A stretch of DNA of 64,000 bases from Parachitinimonas caeni (GTDB lineage Bacteria > Pseudomonadota > Gammaproteobacteria > Burkholderiales > Chitinimonadaceae), in assembly GCF_030129945.1 (NCBI RefSeq), contig NZ_JARRAF010000023.1, forward strand, positions 1 to 64,000. The letters run 5' to 3'. The position numbers and the translations under genes were made by a program. Positions 49,179 to 54,845 of the stretch are shown piece after piece. The number at the start of each line of letters is the position of its first letter. Position 1 is the stretch's first letter. The notes below the pieces were generated by a model that saw only the letters and a list, made by a program, of their open reading frames with translations, ran no database searches and had not been told where the DNA came from.

Positions 49179-49457
49179 GGGTTTAACCGCAGTTCCAGTT
49201 GGTTTGGCAAGAAAACATGAAGATCAAGCCAGGTGAGGTGTTGATCTGCCAGCAGACAGTATTCAAATGACTGCCACCAAATCAACAGGATGCCTAGCCG
49301 GGCCCCTCATCAAGGGGCGTTTATGGTAAACCAAACGCATCCCAGGAGCGTGATATTGCTGAATACCCTTATACTTCAGCCCCATCTTTCATACCGGTTC
49401 ATCCCGCCGAATGATTGTCGCGCCATTCAGTCCACCACTACCAAGGAGTATTCGTTG

Positions 49458-50765
49458 ATGCAGCTTCTTTCACGCTTTCTCTCCGCTACGACAGGGTTGA
49501 GCGGAGTTCGGCCCCTGGCCCGGTTTTCGGGTTTGTTATCCAGTCTGCTGTGGCTGATTGTTTCGCTGGCAGGGATAATGCCCAGCCACGCAGCCGATGC
49601 TCAGGATGTAACCAATCCGACCGTTCAGACCAGCTGGGGCCTGAATGGCTCCGTCTATGCAATGGCCGTACAGAGTGACGGCAAAGTCATAGTCGGGGGC
49701 GAGTTCACCTCTTACCACGACGGTCGCACCGCAATAAGCCGTAACAATATTGCGCGCCTGAACCCGGATGGCTCTCTGGATAGCAGTTTTGCACCAGGCC
49801 TGGCGGCCAATGATCCGGTAGTCGCCATCGCCATACAGGGCGACGGCAAAATCATGATCGGCGGCGGCTTCACCGCCTACAACGGCATCACCCGCAACCG
49901 GATAGCCCGGATTCATAGTGACGGTACGCTGGACAGCAGCTTCAATCCTGGCGAAGGTGCCGCCGGCGGCGAAGTATTGGCCTTGGCCTTACAGAATGAC
50001 GGCAAAGTTGTCATCGGCGGCAAATTTACTTATGTCAACGGTGTACCACGCAATCGTGTCGCTCGACTCAACAGCGACGGCACGCTGGACACCAGCTTTG
50101 GGATTGGCAATGTCAGATACGGCGCTGCGGGTTATGTCATCTCGTTAGCAATACAAAATGATGGCAAGATTCTCGTTTGCGGGAACTTCACCGTCTTCGA
50201 CCGGATAAACCGCAAGTACATCGCCCGTCTGCATAACAACGGTACGCTTGATACCAGCTTCGATCCCCGCAATGGTCCCAGTTCCGAAGTAAACGTCATC
50301 CGGTCCCAAAATGACGGGAAGGTCCTTATCGGGGGGTTCTTCACGGAATACAACGGCGCAAGGAGCGGCCGTCTGGCCCGGCTCAATAGTAATGGCACGC
50401 TGGACAACAGCTTTAACACAGGCTTTGGGACCGACTTGGAGCTCTACTCCCTGGAGGTTCAGGATGATGGCAAAGTGCTGATCGGTGGCAATTTCACCAC
50501 CTATAACGGTGTTGGCCGCCACAGGATCGCCCGCATCAATACGGATGGCTCACTGGATACCAGCTTTACCACAAACCCCGGTACGAATGGCCTAGTGCGA
50601 GCAATCGCCACGCAAGGTCCTAATTTGGTCCTCATCGGCGGCGCGTTTACCAAATACGACGAGACAAGGCGCGACTTTGTCGCCCGGCTAAAAAGCAGCG
50701 GCGCACTGGATAATAAATTTGCCCCAGGACATGCAATTGGTGGGCCTGCAGACGAAACCGAGTAA
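49458..50765 (+). CDS. Secreted delta-60 repeat (DUF5122) beta-propeller protein
   Basis: 435 residues. A long signal peptide ends near MPSHAADA. The body is seven tandem copies of a roughly 55-residue repeat: each ends in a version of [15 protein letters not shown] and contains DGKVxIGGxFTxYNG. Seven blades suggest one closed propeller. Such proteins are secreted or cell-surface; binding partners are unknown. AAGGAG nine bases before ATG 49458 decides the start over the longer frame (49290). It is followed by a strong terminator. Confidence 0.85.
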
Positions 50766-50869
50766 ATGTGCAGCATGCAGGGTGTCCTGATGGCAGGCAT
50801 GCCGTAGACCTGCTCATGCAACGCACCCTACCCCGCCTATTGCACACCTGCTTGTTGCAAGACGGATTG

Positions 50870-50900
50870 AAAGGGCTTCCTTCCCAAGGAAGCCCTTTTT
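50870..50900 (+). terminator. Intrinsic terminator
   Basis: AAAGGGCTTCCTT-CCC-AAGGAAGCCCTTTTT, a 13-bp stem with a T run, about 105 bases after the propeller gene. Confidence 0.9.
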
Positions 50901-50936
50901 CTCACTGTTTACAGCCGCACCGGCCACCTCGACAGG

Positions 50937-50955
50937 CAAACGCAACAGAGCCAGG
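50937..50955. repeat. Solo right end of the dispersed element
   Basis: CAAACGCAACAGAGC followed by CAGG. It resembles the right terminus AAAACGTCAACAGAGC with two missing bases. It is a weak copy upstream of the RCC1 gene. Confidence 0.45.
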
Positions 50956-51044
50956 CTGTCGGCTGTCTCAAACCCGAAAGTAGTGGTGTATCGGGTAAAA
51001 TCATCCCATCTTCTGTCAGCAACCCTCTTTCAGGTTACCGTTTC

Positions 51045-52637
51045 ATGCCCCAGCCTACCTCCCCGTGGCGCGTCATCATTATCAGTCTTACCGCCTGCCT
51101 TTGTATAAATCTGCCCGCCTTAGCCGCGCCTCCGCTCACCGGCATCGTCAAAGTCGCCACCTCGCCCAACCACTTCAGCTGTGCTCTGAATACCGCAGGC
51201 GGCGTGCATTGCTGGGGCAGTAATTCGCAGGGCCAGTTGGGCAACGGCAGCCAGAGTGAGGCCGGCGGCAAGGTCGATGTGCCAGGGCTCAGCAGCGGCG
51301 TTGCCGACATTGCCGTCGGCGGCCTGCACGCCTGCGCCGTGCTAAAGACCGGGAGCGTCAAGTGCTGGGGGCTGAACGCCAGCAGCCAGCTGGGAGATGG
51401 CTCAACCGCCGCCAATCGCACCAGCCACTTTCTGGCGACGCCTACACCGGTCAAAGATCTGGAAGACGCCATTGCCATAGCGCTCGGCGACAACCACAGC
51501 TGTGCCTTGACCAAGACCGGAAAAATCAAATGCTGGGGCAATAATGATCGCGGTCAGCTCGGCCTTGGCGACGTCAAAGGCGTCCCCTTGACCGCCGATA
51601 CGCCCACTGAAATAAGCAGCCTCAGCACGGCCGTCAAGGCCGTCTCGGCGGGTGCAGCCCACACCTGCGCACTCACGCAGGAAGGCGGAATCAAGTGCTG
51701 GGGACGCAACTTGCAAGTTGGTGACAACCGAGAAGCCACCTCCCCCGACGCCACCTACCCGGTAGACGTGCGCGGCCTGACCAGTGATATGGTTGCCGTC
51801 AGCGCTGGCGGCATCATGAGCTGTGGGTTGACGAAGGCGGGGGCTGTCAAATGCTGGGGCGATAACCGGATCGACATCCTGGGCGATGGTCAATCCAAGA
51901 TCAGCAATATGCCGGTGCAGGTGCTCGGGCTGGATAGCGGCATCCAGGCCATCAGCGTGGGCCATATGCATGCTTGCAGTCTGGATCGCAACGGGGCTGT
52001 CAAATGCTGGGGTCTGGGCTTTTTCGGATCACTGGGGGATAACTACGAAAGCATCCTGCGCCCGGCGCCATTCAAGGTGGCGGGCCTGCAAAGCGGGGTG
52101 ACTTCCCTCTCGCTCGGTACCTACCACAGCTGCTCGGTTGATGCCGAGCACCGGCTCAAATGCTGGGGCGACAATCGTAATAACTGGCTGGGCACCGATA
52201 CCGGCAAGGCCATCGACTTTGCCCCCACCCCGGTGGGCTGGAGTACGGGCAACAACAGCTTCAGCATTGCCCCCGCTGCCTCGCGGGTTGGCAACCTTCT
52301 GGGGCTTTCGGCGGATTTCAAATTCAAGGCCAGCGATAAAGGTCTGACCGGCTCGCTGTATGTTGCCGCCCAACTGCCGCAAATCCTTGGGGGCGACTTT
52401 TATCTGTTTGATGGTGCTCAATGGGTGAAGTGGGATCTCGATCCCGCCCATGCCGTTGCGGTCCAAACCATTCAATCCCTGACTGCGGGTGGCAATGTCC
52501 CCATCCTCAGCGGTTACGACATCAGCCAGTTGTCGGGAGTGACGCTGTATGCAGGCTATGGCCGTGCCCCGAATGCCTTCGCAGAAATGCTGGCATCGCA
52601 GACCTACGCCACGCTCTACACCATCATCAATCCATAA
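51045..52637 (+). CDS. Secreted RCC1-repeat beta-propeller protein with a shared C-terminal module
   Basis: 530 residues with a signal peptide (VIIISLTACLCINLPALAAP). About seven RCC1-type repeats (pattern GxxHxCAL then GxVKCWGxNxxGQLGDG) fill about 35-400 and should form a seven-bladed propeller. Many Cys pair per blade (SCAL ... KCWG), so disulphides are likely. The last 125 residues are not RCC1: they match the C-terminal module of the two subtilisins (LYVAAQLPQILGGDFYLFDG ... LYAGYGRAPNAFAEML). The function is unknown; it is extracellular or outer-surface by inference. Confidence 0.87.
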   Translation: MPQPTSPWRVIIISLTACLCINLPALAAPPLTGIVKVATSPNHFSCALNTAGGVHCWGSNSQGQLGNGSQSEAGGKVDVPGLSSGVADIAVGGLHACAVLKTGSVKCWGLNASSQLGDGSTAANRTSHFLATPTPVKDLEDAIAIALGDNHSCALTKTGKIKCWGNNDRGQLGLGDVKGVPLTADTPTEISSLSTAVKAVSAGAAHTCALTQEGGIKCWGRNLQVGDNREATSPDATYPVDVRGLTSDMVAVSAGGIMSCGLTKAGAVKCWGDNRIDILGDGQSKISNMPVQVLGLDSGIQAISVGHMHACSLDRNGAVKCWGLGFFGSLGDNYESILRPAPFKVAGLQSGVTSLSLGTYHSCSVDAEHRLKCWGDNRNNWLGTDTGKAIDFAPTPVGWSTGNNSFSIAPAASRVGNLLGLSADFKFKASDKGLTGSLYVAAQLPQILGGDFYLFDGAQWVKWDLDPAHAVAVQTIQSLTAGGNVPILSGYDISQLSGVTLYAGYGRAPNAFAEMLASQTYATLYTIINP

Positions 52638-52672
52638 CTGGCCACCCTGCGGCGCCGGGTCTGCCCCTGCAC

Positions 52673-52702
52673 AAAGGCCACCTGAACAGGTGGCCTTTTT
52701 AC
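52673..52702 (+). terminator. Intrinsic terminator after the RCC1 gene
   Basis: AAAGGCCACCTG-AA-CAGGTGGCCTTTTT, a 12-bp stem with a T run. It lies about 50 bases past the 3' end of the convergent small-peptide gene and could also stop that transcript, though the minus-strand T run is short. Confidence 0.9.
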
Positions 52703-52750
52703 CTCGGTCCGCCAACCACTTCGACGGCCAATTACCCAGCCGCTACGGCA

Positions 52751-52894
52751 TCAGGGCAAGCGGGAGTAGTAATCGCACATATCGCCGATAGGGTCTGAGC
52801 TCCACTCGCCCCAGCTGTTCTGGCCAGGTTGACGTGTTGCCGCAGCATCGCCGCCGGATACCAACTCCAATTCATCTTCTTTCAGTTCAATCAT
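52751..52894 (-). CDS. Double-glycine leader peptide, copy 1 (47 aa)
   Basis: A peptide gene far below usual gene-call limits. The leader MIELKEDELELVSGG ends in the Gly-Gly processing site and matches the ELxxVSGG pattern of class II microcins and bacteriocins (compare ELDSVSGG of colicin V). The predicted mature peptide has 32 residues, DAAATRQPGQNSWGEW then SSDPIGDMCDYYSRLP, acidic, with one Cys. GGAG sits 8 bases before the ATG. It shares its first 30 residues with copy 2 upstream, with only synonymous differences. Such peptides are cut and exported by ABC transporters with a C39 peptidase; none is in this window. It may be a microcin or a signal peptide. Confidence 0.85.
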   Translation of the reverse strand: MIELKEDELELVSGGDAAATRQPGQNSWGEWSSDPIGDMCDYYSRLP

Positions 52895-53004
52895 CTTTTT
52901 CTCCATTTTGATCGTATTTAAAGGTGCGTCAGCCCAATCTCTTTCGCACGATGATCATACTGCCCGGACTGCCTGACAAATTCAAGCATCCTGTCTAAAG
53001 TTTG

Positions 53005-53151
53005 TTACGGATAGAGCCGGGATAGATACCAGATCAGATCTTCCAGCGGATCTTCGCTGTTCTCTCCCCAGCTATTCTGGCCTGGCTGCCGAGTTGCCGC
53101 CGCATCACCGCCGGATACCAATTCCAATTCATCTTCTTTTAATTCAATCAT
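53005..53151 (-). CDS. Double-glycine leader peptide, copy 2 (48 aa)
   Basis: A tandem paralogue 110 bp upstream of copy 1, on the same strand. The leader is the same 15 residues. The predicted mature peptide (33 residues) starts identically, DAAATRQPGQNSWGE, then differs: NSEDPLEDLIWYLSRLYP. It has no Cys. Kept in both tails are S, DP, a later D, Y, SRL and a final P. GAGG lies seven bases before the ATG. A weak promoter may lie at 53207-53237 (TTGAAA, 19 bases, TATAGT on the minus strand). Divergence limited to the C-terminal half is what is seen in families where that half carries specificity. Confidence 0.85.
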   Translation of the reverse strand: MIELKEDELELVSGGDAAATRQPGQNSWGENSEDPLEDLIWYLSRLYP

Positions 53152-53228
53152 GTTTCAACCTCAATAAATAAACGAAAAGCGCTTACAACTTGCTTGCGCG
53201 ACATAAACTATATCGTAATTCAACTTAT

Positions 53229-53330
53229 TTATTTCAAATTCCAACGTCGCATCGCAGCAATAAAAATAATCAATAAAATCAAAATCATCATTACAAAACC
53301 AACTATTATTCTCCGCAGCGCAAAATACAT
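53229..53330 (-). CDS. Possible 33-aa single-span membrane peptide upstream of the leader peptides
   Basis: MYFALRRIIVGFVMMILILL then IIFIAAMRRWNLK: one hydrophobic helix flanked by Arg residues, on the same strand and 77 bp before leader peptide 2. Small membrane proteins often act as immunity partners of secreted peptides. However, the stretch is very AT-rich, which yields hydrophobic frames by chance, and the ribosome site is poor. Treat as a candidate only. Confidence 0.25.
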   Translation of the reverse strand: MYFALRRIIVGFVMMILILLIIFIAAMRRWNLK

Positions 53331-53405
53331 TCTTGCCGCCCCGCCCCTCTCGACAGCGCATCCGGCCTCCCCTATCTTTGCCGCTTTCTTCAGCCTCTTG
53401 TCGCC

Positions 53406-54845
53406 ATGATTGCCATCGTCTCGATCCTGCGTCCTCGTCTGTTGCAAAGGCTGGTCTGCCTCAGCCTGCTGACTGCGCCCTTAGTGGGAATCGCTGCAAA
53501 GAAGGAGGAATTCATCACCTTCCAGTTCCCCGCCGTGGCGCTGACCCACGTTGAGCTGATCGACGGTAGCGGCAATGCGGTGCAAGCCGATATGACCATC
53601 CTGATCCGGAATGGCCGGATTGAGGCCGTCGGTAAAACCGGAGAACTCGCCGTGCCGCCCGACACTCCGATCAAGGATCTGAGCGGCCATAGCCTGACGC
53701 CCGGCCTGGTGCTGATGCATGAGCACATCTTCTACCCAACCGCCAATGGTGCTTACGGCGCCATGTTCGATTCCTTTCCCAAGCTGTATCTGGCTGGCGG
53801 GGCAACCACCATTCGCACGGCAGGTAGCATCAGCCCCTATGCCGACATCAACCTGAAGCAGGATATTGCCAGTGGCGAGGCGATCGGGCCGGATATCGAG
53901 GTCTCGGCGCCTTTTCTGAATGGCAACACGCCATTCGTGATGCAGATGTCCCGTCTGGCAACGCCCGAGCAAGCCAGGGAGATGGTGGCGTATTGGTCTG
54001 CCGCCGGCGCAGATTCCTTCAAAGCCTATATGCATCTGACCCGCCCGCAGCTGCGGGCCATCGTCGAAGAAGCACACAAGCATGGCAAGAAAGTCACCGG
54101 GCACTTATGCGCCGTTGGTTATCACGAGGCCATCGACCTCGGCATCGACAATATCGAGCACGGCTTCTTTGCCATGACCGATGTCGCACCGGACAAAGTA
54201 TCCGATCAGTGCCCCAGCGGTGACGGCACGCTGCGCATGCTGAATACCCAAAGCCTCGACAGTAGCCAGATTGGCGCCACCATCCTCAAACTGGTGCGGC
54301 GCAAGGTGGCGCTGACTTCGACGCTTGGCGTCTTTGAATCGTTTGCCAGTGGTCGGCCGCAGGCTCCCAAAGGCGCGCTGGATTTGCTGATCCCGGAATT
54401 ACGCCAGCAGTACCTCATTCGCTGGAACGCCCTGGCCAATCAGCCTGACAATCTGTGGTCCCAGCTGCTACCCAAGGGCATGGCCTGGGAGAAGCGGTTT
54501 CATGACGCTGGCGGGCTGCTGATGGCAGGCTCCGATCCGACGGGCTACGGCGGTGTCATCCCTGGCTACTCAAGCCTGCGCCAGCTGGAGTTGCTGCAGG
54601 AAGCTGGCTTCAGCCTGCCGCAAGTGGTGAGGATTGCCTCGCTCAATGGCGCCACCTATCTGGGTCGGGCGGATGAAATCGGCAGCATTGCCCCTGGCAA
54701 GCGGGCGGACATGGTGTTGTTCAAGGGCAGCCTGAGCAAAGATCCGAAAGCACTGCAGCAATTGGTTTGGACGATGAAGGCTGGCGTCGCTTATGACCGC
54801 GCAAAGATTCTGGCGGCGTATCAGGGCAAGATTGGCCTGCAGTGA
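53406..54845 (+). CDS. Secreted amidohydrolase (prolidase/imidazolonepropionase-like)
   Basis: 479 residues with an N-terminal signal (LLQRLVCLSLLTAPLVGIAA). An amidohydrolase-superfamily barrel follows, with a composite beta domain: ALTHVELIDGSGNAVQADMT and MTILIRNGRIEAVG, the metal motif near LTPGLVLMHEHIFYP (HEH in place of the usual HxH), a Lys in DSFKAYMHL that can be carboxylated, His in VTGHLCAVGYHEA and NIEHGFF, and Asp in LMAGSDPTGYGG. It probably cleaves a C-N bond, such as an Xaa-Pro dipeptide or cyclic amide. It is divergent from the leader-peptide genes. Confidence 0.85.
   Translation: MIAIVSILRPRLLQRLVCLSLLTAPLVGIAAKKEEFITFQFPAVALTHVELIDGSGNAVQADMTILIRNGRIEAVGKTGELAVPPDTPIKDLSGHSLTPGLVLMHEHIFYPTANGAYGAMFDSFPKLYLAGGATTIRTAGSISPYADINLKQDIASGEAIGPDIEVSAPFLNGNTPFVMQMSRLATPEQAREMVAYWSAAGADSFKAYMHLTRPQLRAIVEEAHKHGKKVTGHLCAVGYHEAIDLGIDNIEHGFFAMTDVAPDKVSDQCPSGDGTLRMLNTQSLDSSQIGATILKLVRRKVALTSTLGVFESFASGRPQAPKGALDLLIPELRQQYLIRWNALANQPDNLWSQLLPKGMAWEKRFHDAGGLLMAGSDPTGYGGVIPGYSSLRQLELLQEAGFSLPQVVRIASLNGATYLGRADEIGSIAPGKRADMVLFKGSLSKDPKALQQLVWTMKAGVAYDRAKILAAYQGKIGLQ

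What the first reader, a model, noticed from the sequence alone, without database searches (positions are those of the whole stretch)
52751..53151. Tandem pair of unannotated double-glycine leader peptides under purifying selection
Seen: two ORFs of 47 and 48 codons on the minus strand, each with a good ribosome site, encode the same leader MIELKEDELELVSGG and the same following 15 residues. Over the first 30 codons ten codons differ, all synonymously, with no amino-acid change. After codon 30 the peptides diverge but keep S, DP, D, Y, SRL and P. Known: ELxxVSGG with Gly-Gly is the leader of class II microcins and bacteriocins cut by C39-peptidase ABC exporters. Inference: a new exported peptide pair (microcin or signal) with a fixed N-half and a variable C-half. 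One mature peptide has a single Cys, the other none.
Basis: partly seen in the sequence, partly recalled or inferred. Interest (0 to 1): 0.9.

Follow-up and report, generated by a model that had tools for sequence, protein, structure and literature searches.

The report
Twin secreted double-glycine peptides, orphan family
Two neighbouring small genes encode short peptides with the export tag that bacteria use to send out toxins or signals, and a fitting exporter exists elsewhere in the same genome, but the peptides themselves resemble nothing found so far and what they do is not known.

Summary
On the minus strand, A (53005-53151, 48 aa) and B (52751-52894, 47 aa) share 30 identical N-terminal residues; 10 of those codons differ, all synonymously (dS about 1.1, dN 0). 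Codons 31-46 diverge (8 replacement, 5 silent). These are real, long-diverged genes. The leader MIELKEDELELVSGG has the 15-residue register of GG leaders found beside CvaA/CvaB-type exporters in relatives. This genome holds one unlinked CvaA/CvaB-like pair with a C39 Cys-His-Asp triad, a second, less similar C39 exporter with the triad, and outer-membrane factors. Export with cleavage after Gly15 is the likely fate, giving acidic 33- and 32-residue peptides with a constant first half and a variable C-terminal helix. Two overlapping upstream ORFs (33 aa with a membrane span; 66 aa) are uncertain immunity candidates. No relative of the cores was found. 'Microcin' is not established: the precursors are shorter than the reported 75-120 aa, the exporter is unlinked and immunity is unclear. 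Toxin pair and signal pair are close rivals. This is a new orphan family of a known kind.

The parts
53005..53151 (-). Peptide gene A, 48 aa: leader MIELKEDELELVSGG, predicted core DAAATRQPGQNSWGENSEDPLEDLIWYLSRLYP (33 aa, net charge about -4)
52751..52894 (-). Peptide gene B, 47 aa: same leader, predicted core DAAATRQPGQNSWGEWSSDPIGDMCDYYSRLP (32 aa, one Cys, net charge about -3)
53107..53151 (-). 15-residue double-glycine leader of A
   Evidence: register shared with leaders in relatives' CvaAB loci; TIGR01847 match below cut-off
52850..52894 (-). 15-residue double-glycine leader of B
   Evidence: register; TIGR01847 match below cut-off
53229..53330 (-). 33-aa ORF with one membrane span, MYFALRRIIVGFVMMILILLIIFIAAMRRWNLK, 77 bases upstream of A; uncertain immunity or partner candidate (the frame also allows 72 aa from a TTG at 53447)
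   Evidence: for: hydropathy 3.36 reached in 0 of 2000 shuffles of the upstream region (19 of 2000 reach 2.0) and in 1 of 5000 shuffles of its own bases (277 reach 2.0). Against: codon usage poor, weak ribosome site, overlaps the 66-aa ORF, no match in the 9 other family genomes
53161..53361 (-). 66-aa ORF in another frame, overlapping the 33-aa ORF and ending 9 bases before A; rival candidate for an upstream gene, no membrane span seen by eye
   Evidence: GGGGAGG close before its ATG, an ATG ORF of 66 aa or more in 19 of 5000 shuffles, codon usage poor
53207..53237 (-). Promoter-like TTGAAA-19-TATAGT before A; unproven
   Evidence: found by a relaxed scan; the standard scan did not report it
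52673..52698 (.). Perfect 12-bp inverted repeat AAAGGCCACCTG/CAGGTGGCCTTT between the convergent ends of B and the RCC1-repeat gene, probable two-way terminator
   Evidence: one search found no terminator-like site

Best explanation
Genes A and B make two short precursors. A CvaA/CvaB-type C39-peptidase ABC exporter encoded elsewhere in the genome, with an HlyD-like adaptor and a TolC-type channel, recognises the 15-residue leader, cuts after Gly15 and releases acidic peptides of 33 and 32 residues. The constant half DAAATRQPGQNSWGE is kept by strong selection; the C-terminal amphipathic helix differs between the copies and would set what each peptide binds. Outside the cell they act on neighbouring cells of the same or related strains. 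Within this picture I rank a narrow-range bacteriocin-like pair, perhaps guarded by a small protein encoded just upstream, slightly ahead (about 0.45) of a signalling pair (about 0.35). The confidence below is for export and cleavage by this exporter, whichever the role. Shown: genes, leader register, selection pattern, exporter parts with catalytic triad. Inferred: that this exporter handles these peptides, the cleavage, any immunity gene, and the target.
For: Codons 1-30: 11 synonymous and 0 replacement changes, dS about 1.09; codons 31-46: dN about 0.68. Silent versus replacement changed codons 10/0 versus 5/8, Fisher p 0.0027. Leader register M..L...[EDN][LV]..[VI][SATNC]G[GAS], a pattern written after seeing the leaders: 2 of 6059 ATG starts in the own-genome DNA held (A and B) and 6 of 2378 in relatives' CvaAB loci. 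Own C39/ABC protein of 711 aa with C26, H99, D115 (Pfam C39 E 7.5e-33) beside a 414-aa HlyD-family adaptor; the spacing equals that of CvaB C32/H105/D121 (PMC9746304, passages). In relatives, 3 of 5 CvaB homologues at 50% identity or more over most of the protein have a GG-leader ORF within about 5 kb. Outer-membrane factors present. AlphaFold2 model of A: helix 35-46, local pLDDT about 75; helical moments of the C-halves, pieces chosen by me, reached in 69 and 41 of 5000 permutations.
Against: Exporter and peptides are on different contigs (C111, C155). A second C39 exporter with the triad exists (C304). No core homologue anywhere searched. The peptides reach the curated cut-off of no Pfam or NCBIfam model. 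The cores are acidic and lack the Gly-rich or membrane-spanning stretches usual in bacteriocins (recalled). The two upstream ORFs overlap in different frames, so at most one is likely to be a gene, and the codon usage of neither looks like this genome's. The model's mean pLDDT is only 64.6.
Confidence: 0.6

Rival explanations
1. Peptide pheromone pair: the secreted peptides are signals read by a receptor of the same species, with the constant half as common scaffold and the variable helix as type-specific part, like streptococcal double-glycine pheromones (CSP, VP1). Export is as in the best explanation; only the role differs.
For: Best NCBIfam match of both is peptide pheromone VP1 (E 0.0021 and 0.0011, 18.2 and 19.1 bits, residues 2-29 and 2-30), and the only Pfam match is ComC (E 0.21 and 0.29). 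Short acidic cores with a C-terminal amphipathic helix. VP1's exporter and receptor are listed as unknown (PMC7595303, passages).
Against: All these matches are far below the curated cut-offs (18-19 against 85 bits; 11-12 against 20.4) and rest mainly on the leader. No sensor gene adjoins the pair: the direct neighbours are an RCC1-repeat protein and an amidohydrolase. Two co-encoded signals need an explanation.
Confidence: 0.35
2. RiPP precursors with an extended leader: residues 1-30 are the recognition part and the variable C-half is the modified core, processed in trans.
For: Fixed N-part with fast-changing C-part resembles multi-precursor RiPP families (recalled). The genome has several candidate RiPP loci, including a C39 exporter with a JmjC protein and a kinase-like protein on C304.
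Against: No modifying-enzyme family among the 10 neighbouring proteins scanned, one of which had no match. GG lies at 14-15, not next to the variable part. The C304 locus has a 46-aa candidate precursor of its own.
Confidence: 0.12
3. Decaying or non-exported genes: remnants of a bacteriocin locus that lost its exporter, immunity and function.
For: Orphan position, no homologues, AT-rich upstream stretch (36.5% G+C against 57% in the window).
Against: Zero replacement changes in 30 codons at dS about 1.1; open frames and ribosome sites kept in both copies; exporter with catalytic triad present.
Confidence: 0.08

Closest known systems
Class II microcins (colicin V/CvaC type) with CvaA/CvaB/TolC export
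   Same: 15-residue GG leader; C39-ABC exporter with Cys/His/Asp triad and HlyD-like adaptor in the genome
   Different: precursors 47-48 aa instead of 75-120; acidic cores; tandem paralogues with a constant first half; exporter unlinked; immunity gene uncertain
Streptococcal double-glycine pheromones (VP1, ComC/CSP)
   Same: short GG-leader peptides; weak, mainly leader-based matches
   Different: far below family cut-offs; no receptor next to the genes; this genome carries HlyD-like and TolC-type export parts
GG-leader peptides in relatives' CvaAB loci (L059, L060, L062, L066) and in L075
   Same: same leader register in L059, L060, L062, L066; MIELQLQELTLVSGG (L066/L021) and MIELKAEALDLVSGG (L075) are close to MIELKEDELELVSGG
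   Different: no similarity in the cores by eye; those measured are 43 to about 130 aa, all but the 43-aa one longer than A and B

Membership tests
Double-glycine (C39-processed) leader peptides | N-terminal leader of 15-18 aa ending in GG/GA with conserved hydrophobic and acidic positions | tested here: met
   same register as 6 leaders in relatives' CvaAB loci (pattern written after seeing them); but TIGR01847 12.4 bits against a cut-off of 15.7
Double-glycine (C39-processed) leader peptides | a C39-peptidase ABC exporter with catalytic triad in the genome | tested here: met
   C111 protein 711 aa, C26/H99/D115; a second on C304
Double-glycine (C39-processed) leader peptides | actual cleavage after GG and export | not testable with these tools
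   needs experiment
Class II microcins | precursor 75-120 aa (verified members as of PMC9746304) | tested here: not met
   47 and 48 aa
Class II microcins | adjacent immunity protein, 51-216 aa, usually with membrane helices (PMC10233263, passages) | tested here: inconclusive
   33-aa membrane-span ORF (72 aa if a TTG start is used) and overlapping 66-aa ORF upstream; neither supported by codon usage
Class II microcins | C-terminal Gly/Ser-rich siderophore motif (class IIb only) | tested here: not met
   C-termini LIWYLSRLYP and MCDYYSRLP
Class II microcins | antibacterial activity | not testable with these tools
   needs experiment
Peptide pheromone VP1 (NF033772) | score above the curated cut-off of 85 bits | tested here: not met
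   18.2 and 19.1 bits
ComC pheromones (PF03047) | score above the cut-off of 20.4 bits | tested here: not met
   11.9 and 11.4 bits

The most novel reading that the evidence does not exclude
A constant/variable peptide signal or weapon system in a Gram-negative bacterium: twin secreted peptides that share an invariant scaffold half and carry diversifying recognition helices, exported in trans by a CvaAB-type pump. If it signals, it would be a CvaAB-exported pheromone pair in a Gram-negative, comparable to streptococcal pherotypes.
Probability: 0.2. Interest if true: 0.75.

Novelty: new member of a known kind. Interest (0 to 1): 0.45.

Why it matters
Secreted peptides of Gram-negative bacteria outside the enterobacteria are poorly sampled, and short orphan ones are easily missed by searches that require a neighbouring exporter. 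Here the pattern of silent changes shows coding without any homologue, and the constant-half/variable-half design makes a testable prediction about which part binds the target. Both peptides are short enough to synthesise, so toxin and signal can be told apart directly.

Tried and rejected
Homologue searches that led nowhere: two genome-contig scans, one viral-contig scan, plasmids and phages by tblastn, 10 family genomes, and profile searches of 399 order and 369 class genomes (E up to 0.05) and 398 phylum genomes (E up to 0.01); these samples overlap and each includes the own genome.

Weak profile matches were read: 12 of the 12 other order matches and 7 of the 7 other class matches, and 5 of the 9 other phylum matches, which lie in 8 genomes; the remaining 4 were not read. 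Two are true GG leaders with unrelated cores (L021, L075). L080 overlaps, in antisense, the start of what looks by eye like a lolA gene, and L082 has nearly the same letters. L081 and L084 look like RecG by eye. In the rest I saw no leader peptide. My first reading used the wrong strand for minus-strand loci, and one search did so for L083; both were redone.

Rejected: a third degenerate copy in the A-B gap (best 24-nt match reached in 111 of 200 shuffles); an RNA element (no Rfam match in 52500-53600); solved relatives of the peptides (best E 0.17). Synteny: the amidohydrolase neighbour has a relative in 1 of the 9 other family genomes (G009, 55% over part), and my scan of that 2.5-kb locus printed no GG ORF.

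Papers: passages only of PMC9746304, PMC10233263 and PMC7595303; all others were seen as search listings.

Full report
Observation. Two ORFs on the minus strand, A (53005-53151) and B (52751-52894), encode 48 and 47 residues. The first 30 residues are identical, while 10 of those 30 codons differ at 11 nucleotides, all silently. Random placement of 11 changes was never all-silent in 200,000 trials. By Nei-Gojobori counts, codons 1-30 have 11 silent changes on 19.2 sites and 0 replacement changes on 70.8 (dS about 1.09, dN 0); codons 31-46 have 7 on 10.0 and 17 on 38.0 (dS about 2.0, dN about 0.68). Changed codons split 10 silent/0 replacement against 5/8 (Fisher p 0.0027). The 121-nt repeat reaches only 4 nt upstream of the start codons. 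So both are translated genes from an old duplication, with a frozen first half and a fast second half.

Leader and exporter. A whole-genome pattern scan for E-[LF]-x-x-V-[STCRW]-G-G gave 3 matches (the reversed-pattern control gave 1); two are A and B, the third sits in an unrelated 92-aa ORF. The 15-residue register M..L...[EDN][LV]..[VI][SATNC]G[GAS], written after seeing the leaders, occurs at 2 of 6059 ATG starts in 191 kb of own DNA held (both are A and B; window and L014 overlap by 10 kb) and at 6 of 2378 in 69 kb of relatives' loci that were chosen for CvaB homologues or for a GG hit. Two leader-only matches from the profile searches read MIELQLQELTLVSGG (L021/L066) and MIELKAEALDLVSGG (L075). 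The own genome has four ABC proteins with a C39-family domain. The one on C111 (711 aa) has Cys26, His99 and Asp115 and lies beside a 414-aa HlyD-family adaptor. The one on C304, also beside an HlyD-like protein, has the triad too; those on C282 and C110 lack the Cys. The C111 protein reaches none of the NCBIfam cut-offs among the 25 best of 190 models shown; its closest solved relatives by sequence are the 'ABC-type bacteriocin transporter' entries such as 4ry2, with HlyB and ComA further down. The C111 pair stands between an aldolase-like gene and a sensor-kinase-like gene (by eye). No GG-leader gene was seen beside it: one search printed none for this locus, and one search printed only an ORF inside the exporter gene. 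In three family genomes, five CvaB homologues at 50% identity or more over most of the protein were found; 3 of these 5 have a GG-leader ORF in the fetched stretch (G009:C472, G008, G004). The two without lie on contigs of 3.9 and 6.6 kb, and an 80%-identical fragment on G009:C233 was not fetched. Outer-membrane factors are present. Export in trans is therefore plausible but not shown.

Cores. Cleavage after Gly15 would give DAAATRQPGQNSWGENSEDPLEDLIWYLSRLYP and DAAATRQPGQNSWGEWSSDPIGDMCDYYSRLP, pI about 4, charge about -4 and -3. AlphaFold2 on two sequences gives a helix at 35-46 of A with local pLDDT about 75 and mean 64.6, which is weak evidence. The helical moments of the C-halves, in pieces that I chose, are reached in 69 and 41 of 5000 permutations. 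The retained residues S.DP..D...Y.SRL look like a capped amphipathic helix (inference).

Surroundings. B ends 52 bases before a perfect 12-bp inverted repeat shared with the convergent RCC1-repeat gene. Upstream of A lies a divergent amidohydrolase gene. Between them, on the peptide strand, two ORFs overlap in different frames. The 33-aa ORF (53229-53330; up to 72 aa from a TTG at 53447) has a strong membrane span: its hydropathy was reached in 0 of 2000 shuffles of the upstream region and in 1 of 5000 shuffles of its own bases, where an open run of 28 residues or more appeared in 1646 and a hydropathy of 2.0 in 277. The 66-aa ORF (53161-53361) has the better ribosome site (GGGGAGG) and ends 9 bases before A; an ATG ORF of that length arises in 19 of 5000 shuffles. 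Codon usage is poor for both, unlike A and B. The 33-aa ORF has no match in the 9 other family genomes; the 66-aa ORF was not searched. Either may be an immunity or partner gene, or neither; this is inference.

No relatives of the cores. Searches of genome contigs, viral contigs, plasmids and phages, the family and samples of the order, class and phylum (399, 369 and 398 genomes) gave no core homologue. The genome contigs and viral scans depend on short exact peptide patterns and reach close relatives only. Three stretches of the letters occur in no paper of the held library.

What it is. The leader and the exporter place the pair among double-glycine peptides. Class II microcin membership fails on size (75-120 aa for verified precursors; PMC9746304, passages) and is inconclusive on immunity (51-216 aa; PMC10233263, passages). 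Pheromone families VP1 and ComC are matched only weakly and below cut-off. Toxin pair and signal pair are both open; I rank the toxin pair slightly ahead because CvaAB-type exporters are best known for bacteriocins (recalled, and PMC10233263 passages), and I count the acidic, non-membranous cores and the unclear immunity against it.

Noticed in passing
L011 7599-14047 (own genome C304): RiPP-like locus: 46-aa candidate precursor (MQKVENKELDLRNLEIVTEVTEKAAGNDTEESFEIWTITAGSSIHN, part of a 67-aa TTG ORF), HlyD-like protein, 821-aa C39-ABC exporter with triad, protein kinase-like protein and JmjC_2 protein in a row.
   Followed up: partly
L013 11866-13314 (own genome C110): 482-aa ORF made of repeated GKRPQAA(E)VVEAAR-like units, a few kb from an HlyB/HlyD-like pair and beside what looks by eye like an ATP-grasp protein: possible multi-core modified peptide.
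   Followed up: no
L065 3571-4076 (own genome C88): Two lanthipeptide-like precursors with several Cys each; the 71-aa one passes NF038153, class I lanthipeptide (26.9 against 22 bits); the other was not scanned.
   Followed up: partly
L064 5386-7850 (own genome C315): Pair of GG-leader peptides (80 and 66 aa), each followed by one of two closely similar Cys-containing proteins of about 150 aa; the first peptide passes TIGR01847 (18.6 against 15.7 bits).
   Followed up: no
L063 4457-5355 (own genome C111): 62-aa GG-leader peptide gene directly upstream of what looks by eye like a LuxR-type autoinducer-binding regulator.
   Followed up: no
L012 600-3014 (own genome C282): YcaO protein gene (Pfam) with a neighbouring cyclodehydratase-like ORF (by eye), a few kb from an HlyB/HlyD-like pair.
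   Followed up: no
L066 6714-17459 (G293): At least four GG-leader peptides among repeated JmjC/cupin-like ORFs (by eye) and followed by a CvaA/CvaB-like pair; JmjC-type proteins thus recur near C39 exporters here and on own C304.
   Followed up: no
window 49290-52637: Two neighbouring genes of repeat proteins with signal-peptide-like N-termini (by eye): DUF5122 beta-propeller repeats and RCC1 repeats.
   Followed up: no
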